From an uncultured Erysipelotrichaceae bacterium (GTDB lineage Bacteria; Bacillota_I; Bacilli_A; Erysipelotrichales; Erysipelotrichaceae), in the NCBI GenBank assembly GCA_900315225.1, contig OMYM01000002.1, positions 1-34,307 on the forward strand: DNA of 34,307 bases, given 5' to 3'. Made by a program: the position numbers and the translations under genes. This document shows positions 14,220-17,448 of the stretch, in pieces; positions within the stretch are counted from its first letter, which is position 1, and each line of letters begins with the position of its first letter. The notes beneath the pieces were generated by a model. It saw nothing but the letters and a program-made list of their open reading frames with translations, did no database searches and was not told where the DNA came from.

Positions 14220-14247
14220 AAAGAAGCAGCCATATGGCTGCTTCTTT
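14220..14247 (+). terminator. Terminator-like perfect palindrome after the EAL gene
   Basis: A 28-bp perfect inverted repeat, AAAGAAGCAGCCAT / ATGGCTGCTTCTTT, centred at 14233/14234 and starting 7 nt after the stop. The T tract is short (CTTCTTTG). It separates the c-di-GMP gene from the Fic remnant. Confidence 0.75.
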
Positions 14248-14815: not shown

Positions 14816-15169
14816 GACCCCATTGGATCACAAGCAATACAACCTTTCACTATACACTAAACTGTTACGTTATATCGCTTTTTTGTTTGGCATTCTGGAC
14901 TTTATGCTTACAATAAAACAACCGCTAGAATTGAACGACATTCCTGTTTGTATCCTATAGCTGAATCCCTTTCGGCATCCACTTATTATGGGAGAAGCTG
15001 GCAAATGCGTGGAAAAGATTCTCCAACACATGCCGCATAATCGTTCGGCAGCCAAAGATCATGATTAAATCATTCATCCTATGATCATTATTCCTCCCGC
15101 ACTTCTAGTCGTTGGCAGGGGGCTACTGGATACACTCATGCAAAACGCTTGGCAATATGGAAGTTCATG
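14816..15169. other. Intergenic stretch without a recognisable gene
   Basis: No reading frame here has a ribosome binding site and a protein-like composition, and I could not find the missing N-terminal part of the Fic gene in it. A short minus-strand frame (15055-14870, 61 codons) has no recognisable motif. It probably holds decayed sequence left when the module to the right was gained. Confidence 0.5.
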
Positions 15170-15198
15170 TTGCAAGCATGCATAATATGATGTAATAT
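15170..15198 (+). promoter_or_regulatory. Promoter of the ATPase/TOPRIM-like module
   Basis: TTGCAA (15170-15175), a 17-nt spacer and TAATAT (15193-15198). It gives the two-gene module its own transcription start about 40 nt before the GTG. Confidence 0.65.
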
Positions 15199-15217
15199 AG
15201 TGATGACGCCTGATATC

Positions 15218-15232
15218 AACGTCTCAGACGTT
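15218..15232. promoter_or_regulatory. Palindrome between promoter and ribosome binding site (possible operator)
   Basis: A perfect 7-1-7 inverted repeat, AACGTCT-C-AGACGTT, starting 20 nt past the -10 and ending directly before AAGGAGG (15234-15240). It could be a repressor site or a small 5'-UTR hairpin limiting translation. Confidence 0.5.
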
Positions 15233-15245
15233 ATAAGGAGGATCT

Positions 15246-16418
15246 GTGGTTAAGATATTAAAAATCAGGGCAGAGGGGCTGCCGCTTTATAAACAACCCT
15301 TGGTTCTTACATTCACTGCAATGCAACGTGTTCATGAATCGCATATGAATGCTGTGTCAAATCTATTTGGCAACGTGTATGTGAATCATGCTGAAGCGTT
15401 CATTGGCTTGAACGCAACTGGTAAGACAATGACATTGAATGTTATTTCATTTGTATTCTCACTCTTAAGCGCAAAGCCATTGAACTCTATCGAAACCCCA
15501 ATGCTTATGTACAGTGATAAGAATGTTACTTTCGATGTTGATTTTTTTGCGGATGGCAAGTTATATCACTTGAAAAGTGAAATCGCTAAAAAAAAGCAAG
15601 CAAATAGGATTGATCCTAATGAGAGTGAGTCATATTTAATCTTGAATGAAAAACTATGGATAAGGCAAGTTAACACTAGGATGAATAAGTCTCATCTATT
15701 TGATTATGCTGGGCTTGAACCGACCATGGAACGTAGTACATTCGAGAAATATCTACCGGCAGATGTGAGTATCATGGTAACTTTAAACAAAGAAATGGAT
15801 GGTGGAATAAAATTCATTGATTTGACTGTATTTACTAACAACAATACATTTTACACATTTGGCGATTTTGTTCCCAGCGAAATCATATCAATGCTTGATC
15901 CAAGCATTGCGTCTATTTCACGAGAAGGTTTCAATGATAAACCATGCATTAAACTTAAATTTAAGAATGGATCAGAATACACTATATTCGAGCGATATGA
16001 ACTAAACAAGTATTTATCGTCAGGAACAATCAAGGGAATATACATATTTGAAATTTTGGCAAATGTCTTGGAATTGGGTGGTTATATGATTGTTGATGAA
16101 TTAGAAAATCATTTCAATCATGAGCTTGTCGCAACATTGCTAAGGATATTTTTGAACAAGCGGACAAACCCGAAAGGAGCCGTGATAATATTCTCAACGC
16201 ATTACCCAGAGCTTCTCGATGAGCTTCAAAGGAACGATTCCGTATTCATTACCCGGAAAAACGATGGACTTGCGACAGAAAATTTGAACGACTTGCTGAA
16301 GCGGAATGATTTGAAGAAAAGCGAAATATATGAAAGTAGCTTTCTTGGTGGAACGGCACCAAAGTATAGTGCGATCGATGCCTATCGTAAAAGTATTATA
16401 GCTCGCTTGGGAGGATAA
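15246..16418 (+). CDS. ABC-type AAA ATPase of a two-gene (probable defence) module
   Basis: The 390-aa protein has Walker A GLNATGKT (54-61), an ABC-like signature LSSGTIKG (257-264), Walker B YMIVDELENHF with the catalytic Glu285 (280-290), and an H-loop STHYPELLDE (317-326). There is no membrane segment. This is the layout of overcoming-lysogenization/RloA/AbiLi-like ATPases, which act with a second protein. The start is GTG 15246 with a perfect AAGGAGG site. The stop TAA abuts the ATG of the partner gene with no gap. Base composition is more AT-rich than the flanking genes, which suggests transfer. Role in phage defence is inference from family and gene pairing; the direct biochemical role is unknown. 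Confidence 0.85.
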   Translation: MVKILKIRAEGLPLYKQPLVLTFTAMQRVHESHMNAVSNLFGNVYVNHAEAFIGLNATGKTMTLNVISFVFSLLSAKPLNSIETPMLMYSDKNVTFDVDFFADGKLYHLKSEIAKKKQANRIDPNESESYLILNEKLWIRQVNTRMNKSHLFDYAGLEPTMERSTFEKYLPADVSIMVTLNKEMDGGIKFIDLTVFTNNNTFYTFGDFVPSEIISMLDPSIASISREGFNDKPCIKLKFKNGSEYTIFERYELNKYLSSGTIKGIYIFEILANVLELGGYMIVDELENHFNHELVATLLRIFLNKRTNPKGAVIIFSTHYPELLDELQRNDSVFITRKNDGLATENLNDLLKRNDLKKSEIYESSFLGGTAPKYSAIDAYRKSIIARLGG

Positions 16419-16961
16419 ATGATAGTTGAAATTCCCAGTAATTGTCCAGTCGCGTGTATATGCGAGGGAGGGGCTGAAACAGCAATCATCAATATTCTTC
16501 TTGATGCGGGGAAATTGATTTTCAAAAGTTCTCAATTGATAGAGGATGAGCCTCTTAGGCGAACTTCAGGCAAGGAGTTTTGCGAAAGATATTTAAAGAA
16601 AGACTTCGAATCTAAAGTATATGTGATAAGAGTGATAGATTCGAAACGTGAAAATTTTAAAATTACCCAGCAATATAAGAGTAAAATTGAACAAGTTATT
16701 GATGTTGTTACGTCTCCTGAAATTGAAATGTTGATAATAATTAGCGAAGGAATGTATGATGATTACAAAAATTCGAATTATAAGAAGCCAAGTGAATATT
16801 GTAAATCGAAATTGAAGATTAAATATGTGAAATCTCCTAGCTATTATCAAGATAAATTTGGCAATGATGTTGATTTTTTGATAAAATGTATTAAGGAATA
16901 TAGTAGAGTTCATAAGCAAGATGAAGATAAAGCTACACTTTATGACTTAATTAAAAAATAA
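16419..16961 (+). CDS. Small TOPRIM-like (RloB/AbiLii-type) partner protein
   Basis: A 180-aa soluble protein, markedly AT-rich and Lys/Ile-rich. It shows a TOPRIM-like order of acidic motifs: an N-terminal strand and CICEGGAETAIINILL (Glu16, Gly17), then YVIRVIDSKRENF (Asp74, with a D-S-K in place of the canonical DxD), then TSPEIEMLIIISEG (98-111), which resembles the P-x-hE-x-hhL segment of RloB-type proteins. TOPRIM partners of ABC-type ATPases are thought to be metal-dependent nucleases. The incomplete DxD makes activity uncertain. Its ATG follows the ATPase stop directly, with GGGAGG inside the end of the ATPase gene as ribosome binding site. The TOPRIM assignment is tentative; the pairing is certain. 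Confidence 0.75.
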   Translation: MIVEIPSNCPVACICEGGAETAIINILLDAGKLIFKSSQLIEDEPLRRTSGKEFCERYLKKDFESKVYVIRVIDSKRENFKITQQYKSKIEQVIDVVTSPEIEMLIIISEGMYDDYKNSNYKKPSEYCKSKLKIKYVKSPSYYQDKFGNDVDFLIKCIKEYSRVHKQDEDKATLYDLIKK

Positions 16962-16989
16962 CGATGTATGACGACTGATTTGAACTTTT

Positions 16990-17096
16990 CTATACTTGGA
17001 CGCATAAATAGGTAGAATTCAGTATCGTCTGCCTGCTGTTATATGCGGAACGATTGTAAATATCTGGAACAGATATTTACAATCGTTTCAGTATAA
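16990..17096. repeat. Dispersed intergenic repeat, copy 2, with near-perfect hairpin
   Basis: This 107-bp copy matches 197-301 from CTATACTTGGACGC to CAGTATAA. Its right half is a long inverted repeat, CGATTGTAAATATCTG-gaa-CAGATATTTACAATCG, perfect over 16 bp and extending to about 20 with one mismatch. It lies between the convergent TOPRIM-like gene (stop 16961) and the XRE pseudogene, where the hairpin could also act as a terminator. Confidence 0.8.
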
Positions 17097-17448
17097 AACG
17101 TTTCGACCATGTCATAGATTACCTTTCTGTTTCCTTGGGTATCATGCATTTTTTTCAATTGCTCTATTTCCTCGGGATGCAGGTCAAGCAAGGATTCCTC
17201 GGCTTTGGTTCCGTAATCTCCACATGGAAAAAGCCAGCGATTGCGTTGATATGGCGCATAAACGATGTGTTCTCGCCATTTTTCTATTTTGTAAAAGCGA
17301 CTTCGTTGATCCCCAGGTGCCTTGCGAGTTCTATCTGTTTGAGGCATCTAATCCCAAGTGTTTTAAGGGTGTGGTCCAGCACTGGGTTGTATTCCCTTTT
17401 GTTTTCTTTCATTTTTTCTTCCAAATAGTCAAATAACACAAGCTTCAT
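17097..17448 (-). pseudogene. XRE-family regulator, inactivated
   Basis: From ATG 17448 the minus strand reads MKLVLFDYLEEKMKENKREY and on into an HTH (LKQIELARHLGINEVAFTK). An in-frame TAG (17286-17284) falls exactly where XRE helices carry a conserved Trp (TK-stop-KNGENTSFMRHINAIAGFF), so a TGG to TAG change is the likely event. Further on, a frameshift near 17215 is needed to join a plausible tail (DYGTKAEESLLDLHPEEIEQLKK in two parts, then VIYDMVE). Two independent lesions argue against sequencing error alone. The 3' end runs into repeat copy 2 and is uncertain. The 190 nt upstream (17449-17640) hold only the promoter of the next gene. Confidence 0.7.

What the first reader, a model, noticed from the sequence alone, without database searches (positions are those of the whole stretch)
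15170..16961. AT-rich two-gene module: ABC-type ATPase plus small TOPRIM-like protein, candidate defence system
The two genes abut with no gap, share one promoter, are more AT-rich than their neighbours, and lie between a decayed Fic gene and a dispersed repeat. The ATPase has full Walker A, signature, Walker B and H-loop. The 180-aa partner has an N-terminal EGG motif, a D-S-K motif and a PEIEML segment, like a shortened RloB/AbiLii-type TOPRIM. ATPase-TOPRIM pairs (OLD, RloAB, AbiL, PARIS) are known anti-phage systems. This partner is short with an atypical DxD, so it could be an undescribed subtype.
Basis: partly seen in the sequence, partly recalled or inferred. Interest (0 to 1): 0.78.

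Follow-up and report, generated by a model that had tools for sequence, protein, structure and literature searches.

The report
Self-regulated ATPase and mini-nuclease module
Two neighbouring bacterial genes, an ABC-type ATPase and a very small TOPRIM-like nuclease, form a widespread pair that family libraries do not recognise as a pair and that carries its own conserved double DNA switch; it is probably a self-regulated anti-phage system related to AbiL, PARIS, Septu and Gabija.

Summary
The two-gene module is real. The pair sits together in patchily distributed genomes of at least seven phyla (261 genome-scan hits; ATPase and partner distances correlate, r = 0.94). The ATPase matches AbiLi (9e-33) and folds like PtuA/Rad50. 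The 180-aa partner matches no Pfam, PADLOC, NCBIfam or PHROG model. Its confident AlphaFold model puts E16, E20, D74, T98, E101 and E103, invariant in 95 of 95 members, where OLD/Gabija TOPRIM nucleases hold their metal ligands; the second D of DxD is lost in 92 of 95. Homology to RloB/AbiLii is not significant by sequence, and the ATPases form their own clade beside RloB-paired AbiLi, so this is not an AbiL member but a sister type.

In all 49 two-copy loci the copies are 61-64 bp apart and straddle the promoter (0.03 loci expected). It is almost absent elsewhere. The window keeps one copy and half of the other. The module lacks a separate regulator, so one of its two proteins, or their complex, probably reads this operator. 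Anti-phage activity and the operator's reader remain untested.

The parts
15152..15176 (+). Half-decayed upstream operator O1 (GCAATATGGAAGTTCATGTTGCAAG); the right half-site TGTTGCAAG is kept
   Evidence: 61 bp from O2 and same right half as L021 CGTTGCAAG; the left half is degenerate, so this copy is inferred
15170..15175 (+). -35 element TTGCAA inside O1
   Evidence: Same place as TTGATA in homologues, 17 bp before the -10; inferred
15193..15198 (+). -10 element TAATAT
   Evidence: Position as TATAAT in homologues; inferred
15213..15237 (+). Downstream operator O2, ATATCAACGTCTCAGACGTTATAAG (AACG-N7-CGTT)
   Evidence: only copy in the window
15235..15241 (+). Ribosome-binding site AAGGAGG of the ATPase
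   Evidence: Sequence
15246..16418 (+). ABC-type ATPase, 390 aa, AbiLi/PtuA-like
   Evidence: PADLOC AbiLi 9.1e-33; Pfam AAA_21 6.7e-11; AlphaFold pLDDT 90.8; PtuA 9e90 Z 17.3
16419..16961 (+). Small TOPRIM-like nuclease partner, 180 aa
   Evidence: AlphaFold pLDDT 94.2; OLD Toprim Z 6.1; E16, E20, D74, T98, E101, E103 invariant in 95/95

Best explanation
A two-gene, abortive-infection-type defence module: an ABC ATPase (AbiLi/PtuA-like) that senses infection or gates activity, and a minimal TOPRIM-type two-metal nuclease that is the effector. In resting cells the pair keeps its own promoter down: one of the two proteins, or their complex, binds two 25-bp palindromes, O1 on the -35 and O2 at the transcript start, six helical turns apart. 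A phage-derived trigger changes the ATPase state, frees or activates the nuclease, which cuts nucleic acid (RNA such as tRNA is somewhat more likely than DNA) and stops the infected cell. Shown by computation: the pair, its co-inheritance, the conserved catalytic-type residues, the operator and its geometry. Inferred: nuclease activity, autorepression, the trigger, the target and the anti-phage role.
For: Co-occurrence: 87 of 88 pairs lie within -38 to +17 bp; distance correlation r 0.94, best of 2000 permutations 0.24. Patchy and mobile: 14 of 392 genomes, megaplasmids, UViGs. ATPase: AbiLi 9e-33 and AriA 5e-13, PtuA and Rad50 folds. Partner: residue offsets of the structural matches put OLD E400/E404 and GajA E379 on E16/E20 (with PMC6755086, PMC8136825); D74 ends strand 67-73 and T98/E101/E103 follow strand 90-97. 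Operator: 49 of 82 loci with a second site at 61-64 bp, 0.03 expected; 62 of 83 loci with a strong site upstream, 1 site in 822 kb elsewhere; 18 of 19 genome-wide match loci hold the module ATPase; 17 of 24 divergent loci keep the core, 1 expected. The partner family is basic (median pI 8.6), the ATPase acidic (6.0).
Against: No significant sequence or Foldseek match of the partner to any TOPRIM; the structural Z of 6.1 is in the range of common arrangements. The second D of DxD is absent in 92 of 95. No enrichment of known defence families next to the module over genes 4-6 kb away. Neither protein has a recognisable DNA-binding domain. One partner lacks its ATPase (L091), which is odd if free partner is toxic.
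Confidence: 0.6

Rival explanations
1. It is an ordinary AbiL system (AbiLi plus AbiLii/RloB) whose second protein has shrunk and diverged.
For: The ATPase hits AbiLi in 51 of 51 members. The best profile alignment puts D74 on the RloB aspartate and TSPEIE on SNPCFE. Same gene order.
Against: RloB/AbiLii models do not hit any of 76 partners; profile score within reach of decoys; ATPase clade separate, 100/100; the operator is absent from the AbiL loci. The same genome also holds canonical AbiL pairs.
Confidence: 0.15
2. A toxin-antitoxin or addiction module whose main role is its own upkeep, with the ATPase as antitoxin; any phage defence would be secondary.
For: Two-gene operon with operators on both sides of the promoter, like AbiE (PMC7319586, found). 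AAA proteins neutralise TOPRIM toxins in NetFlax pairs (PMC10440598).
Against: F. nucleatum AbiLi did not neutralise AbiLii (PMC3985639); in WonAB the ATPase is needed to activate the nuclease (PMC12137116). Orphan and half-decayed copies exist.
Confidence: 0.15
3. The partner is not a nuclease but a TOPRIM-derived DNA-binding protein; the pair works in DNA repair or plasmid/chromosome upkeep (Rad50-like).
For: The ATPase fold also matches Rad50/SMC heads; the second D of DxD is lost; the palindromes point to sequence-specific binding.
Against: Metal-ligand-type acids are the most conserved residues; patchy distribution; AbiLi is the closest family.
Confidence: 0.1

Closest known systems
AbiL (AbiLi + AbiLii/RloB, Lactococcus lactis)
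   Same: ATPase then TOPRIM-type partner, two genes; the ATPase matches the AbiLi model
   Different: Partner 170-185 aa without RloB/AbiLii match or full DxD; separate ATPase clade; own double operator
PARIS (AriA + AriB)
   Same: ABC ATPase and separate TOPRIM nuclease; weaker AriA match (5e-13)
   Different: Partner has no AriB match; trigger unknown
OLD / Gabija GajA
   Same: TOPRIM ligand pattern: Glu, Glu at +4, Asp after the third strand, Thr and Glu at the next helix; GajA also reads a palindrome (AATAACCNGGTTATT)
   Different: Separate genes, second D of DxD missing, no invariant Lys found to match the OLD catalytic Lys
Septu (PtuA + PtuB)
   Same: Best fold match of the ATPase (Z 17.3)
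   Different: The partner has no match to PtuB or any HNH family
[quoted passage not shown]
   Same: ABC ATPase plus one small nuclease, two-gene operon
   Different: WonB is PD-(D/E)xK with an essential Lys; no invariant Lys here. Sequences of the related Anaerovibrio pair could not be compared
AbiE (type IV toxin-antitoxin)
   Same: Inverted repeats at the promoter of a two-gene abortive-infection operon
   Different: Different protein families; here no protein with a recognisable DNA-binding domain

Membership tests
AbiL | AbiLi-type ATPase | tested here: met
   PDLC02335 9.1e-33; 51 of 51 members
AbiL | AbiLii/RloB partner (PF13707 or PADLOC AbiLii) | tested here: not met
   No hit in 76 members; hhalign Prob about 1 or less
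AbiL | ATPase groups with RloB-paired AbiLi | tested here: not met
   Separate sides of a 100/100 branch
PARIS | AriB-type TOPRIM partner | tested here: not met
   No AriB hit of the partner or its 75 relatives in PADLOC
OLD / Gabija | ATPase and TOPRIM in one chain | tested here: not met
   Two ORFs in all 88 pairs measured
Septu | HNH partner PtuB | tested here: not met
   No PtuB or HNH-family hit among the families listed for the partner
TOPRIM superfamily | Conserved Glu after strand 1 | tested here: met
   E16 in 95/95, strand 11-15; offset equals OLD E400 and GajA E379
TOPRIM superfamily | DxD after strand 3 | tested here: not met
   D74 95/95, but D at position 76 in 3 of 95; E/D at 78 in 92 of 95
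TOPRIM superfamily | TOPRIM fold | tested here: inconclusive
   OLD Toprim ranks 3-6, Z 5.8-6.1, about 140 residues, rmsd 4.1-4.5; Foldseek not significant
WonAB | PD-(D/E)xK nuclease with catalytic Lys | tested here: not met
   No Lys is invariant in 95 members
Anti-phage defence system | Protection against phage | not testable with these tools
   Needs a phage challenge
Toxin-antitoxin system | Partner toxic, ATPase neutralises | not testable with these tools
   Needs expression tests

The most novel reading that the evidence does not exclude
The small nuclease (alone or held by the ATPase) is itself the sequence-specific reader of the O1-O2 palindromes: a TOPRIM nuclease that doubles as repressor of its own operon, so that whatever activates it for attack also lifts it from its promoter.
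Probability: 0.2. Interest if true: 0.8.

Novelty: new variant of a known kind. Interest (0 to 1): 0.6.

Why it matters
A common two-gene module is absent as a pair from the family libraries scanned, so annotation pipelines probably miss it; one partner is even annotated 'N-6 DNA methylase'. It may show one of the smallest TOPRIM effectors of this kind and how far the DxD motif can erode. The conserved double operator gives a concrete handle on a largely open question: how ATPase-nuclease defence pairs are kept silent, and whether they regulate themselves without a dedicated regulator.

Tried and rejected
Partner against Pfam, PADLOC, NCBIfam, PHROGs and PDB sequences: nothing credible. Weak NsnC hit (3.9e-4 in 5 of 76): not pursued. 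Foldseek PDB and BFVD: no significant match. RloB homology by profiles: not significant. Defence-island enrichment: no difference between immediate and 4-6 kb neighbours; crude, only counts of matched families. Empty-site comparison in the genus: flanks too divergent. RNA element instead of DNA operator: rejected, because O1 lies on or just upstream of the -35 and half-sites are conserved rather than compensated. Operator scan of viral contigs: swamped by chance matches. The one genome-wide match away from the module (L241) looks like a terminator-type hairpin beside another gene. The ABC-ATPase survey of Krishnan 2020 is not held, so prior mention there cannot be excluded.

Full report
What is there. 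The window is a whole contig of a 5.2-Mb draft genome with 9% estimated contamination. The ATPase (15246-16418) and the partner (16419-16961) abut; each has a ribosome-binding site. The module is the AT-rich trough of the window: GC 0.35 against 0.46. To the left lies a Fic remnant. To the right lie a 108-bp palindromic repeat with some 40 copies in the genome and a decayed HTH gene.

The pair is a unit. A profile of the partner found 261 relatives in the genome collection, of which the best 80 were fetched. 76 of these 80 keep at least part of the ATPase upstream; three others stop at a contig edge, and one (L091) keeps only the last 27 residues of the ATPase. Of 88 pairs measured, 87 lie within -38 to +17 bp. 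ATPase and partner distances correlate at r = 0.94 over 95 loci. Hosts by record title are Bacillota, Fusobacteriota, Campylobacterota, Psychromonas, Spirochaetaceae, Synergistaceae and Bifidobacterium; some are metagenome bins, but Psychromonas and the Bifidobacterium plasmids are isolates. Distribution is patchy: 10 of 149 relatives and 14 of 392 genomes of the phylum. Megaplasmids and viral-collection contigs carry it too.

The ATPase. PADLOC AbiLi at 9e-33 is the best family, then AriA at 5e-13; all 51 relatives match AbiLi. Its model (pLDDT 90.8) fits PtuA of retron and Septu systems (Z 16-17, over nearly the whole chain) and Rad50/SMC heads. In a maximum-likelihood tree, ATPases with the small partner and 22 other AbiLi-family ATPases, many of them RloB-paired, fall on two sides of a 100/100 branch. 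Canonical AbiL pairs occur elsewhere in the same genome.

The partner. It has no family in Pfam, PADLOC, NCBIfam, PHROGs or PDB sequences. The AlphaFold model is confident (pLDDT 94.2, pTM 0.89). Foldseek finds nothing significant. The slower aligner ranks OLD Toprim domains 3rd to 6th (Z 5.8-6.1, about 140 residues) and GajA at Z 5.3, with unrelated Rossmann-like folds at similar Z, so the fold call rests on more than Z. The alignment starts give the same register in three proteins: OLD 392 on model residue 8 (Xcc), 391 on 7 (Bp), GajA 371 on 8. If the first strand has no gap, OLD E400 and E404 fall on E16 and E20, and GajA E379 falls on E16. In OLD, E400 and D455 hold metal A, and E508, E404 and T506 serve metal B (PMC6755086); E379A kills GajA nuclease activity (PMC8136825). 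In the partner family E16, G17, E20, D74, T98, E101, E103 and L105 are invariant in 95 of 95, with D74 right after strand 67-73 and T98 right after strand 90-97. The second D of DxD is missing in 92 of 95; an E or D stands at +4 instead in 92. This supports an active two-metal TOPRIM-type nuclease by inference. Homology to RloB in particular is not shown: the best profile alignment pairs the right motifs, but its score is within reach of shuffled decoys.

A double operator not in the finding. A scan for inverted repeats upstream of the ATPase gave 30 of 88 loci against 6 after shuffling, with one recurring sequence, TAAAAACG-N7-CGTTKWTA. Where two copies are found (49 loci) they are always 61-64 bp apart; 0.03 such loci are expected when the flanks are shuffled (a few loci are near-duplicates). 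The upstream copy overlaps or abuts the -35 (CGTTGATAA contains TTGATA), a TATAAT follows 17 bp on, and the downstream copy lies between the -10 and the ribosome-binding site. A strong site lies upstream in 62 of 83 loci, with one in 822 kb of other DNA and none in 187 kb of AbiL and RloB loci. In 25 whole genomes an exact pattern matched almost only at the module: 18 of 19 loci returned hold its ATPase. Members with proteins only about 30% identical keep the core AAACR-N7-YGTTT in 17 of 24 cases, 1 expected. The window has O2 intact at its core (15213-15237) and, 61 bp upstream, the right half of O1 with the -35 TTGCAA. A housekeeping regulator with a single target in so many phyla is unlikely, and no third gene family recurs next to the pair. 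So one of the two proteins, or both together, probably reads the site. The partner is the basic one. AbiE shows the same logic, with inverted repeats bound by its antitoxin (PMC7319586, abstract).

How it most likely works. ABC ATPases of this group sense infection and hold or fire a nuclease: AriB cuts tRNA (PMC12409363), Septu cuts tRNA (PMC13096335, abstract), GajA nicks DNA (PMC8136825), and WonA is needed to activate a 16-kDa nuclease that stops translation (PMC12137116). The F. nucleatum AbiLii is toxic, and its AbiLi did not neutralise it (PMC3985639). I infer the same division of labour here, with self-repression through O1-O2 keeping the module low until it is triggered. RNA as target is a slight preference only.

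What limits this. No function was tested. The neighbourhood gives no defence signal over its own control. The Krishnan 2020 survey is not held, and the sequences of the Anaerovibrio 'novel REase' pair and the NetFlax D60 toxin could not be compared, so the pair may have been glimpsed before under another name.

Noticed in passing
window 16988-17096: About 108-bp repeat with a long hairpin (fold z -4.9), some 40 copies in this genome, several at contig ends; a REP/MITE-like element that may also end the module's transcript.
   Followed up: partly
window 17039-17428, minus strand; G000:C505 (L216) and G000:C460 (L215): Decayed XRE-type HTH gene; its two closest copies in the genome each stand upstream of another ABC-ATPase gene (in C460 with a 364-aa TOPRIM-like partner), as if the HTH gene marks an exchange site for such modules.
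   Followed up: partly
G000:C77, C229, C291 (L217, L218, L219): Further copies of the same module in this genome, decayed or cut by contig ends; the C77 copy keeps an operator about 97 bp before its ATPase.
   Followed up: partly
L091 3191-3718: Intact small partner with only the last 27 residues of the ATPase left upstream: an orphan that bears on whether free partner is toxic.
   Followed up: no
L013 9998-10540: The partner is annotated 'N-6 DNA methylase' on the L. salivarius megaplasmid, probably a mis-annotation.
   Followed up: no
G000 (whole draft genome): Ten AbiLi-family ATPase matches in one draft genome, at least two with RloB partners; 9% contamination may inflate this.
   Followed up: no
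window 14220-14247: Perfect 28-bp palindrome just after the GGDEF/EAL gene, probably its terminator; near-copies occur in a related genome.
   Followed up: no
L165 1480-2022, L168 1501-2046: Partners of a side branch with DRP or DRV in place of DSR, no Arg at position 71 and no acid at +4; they may differ in activity.
   Followed up: no
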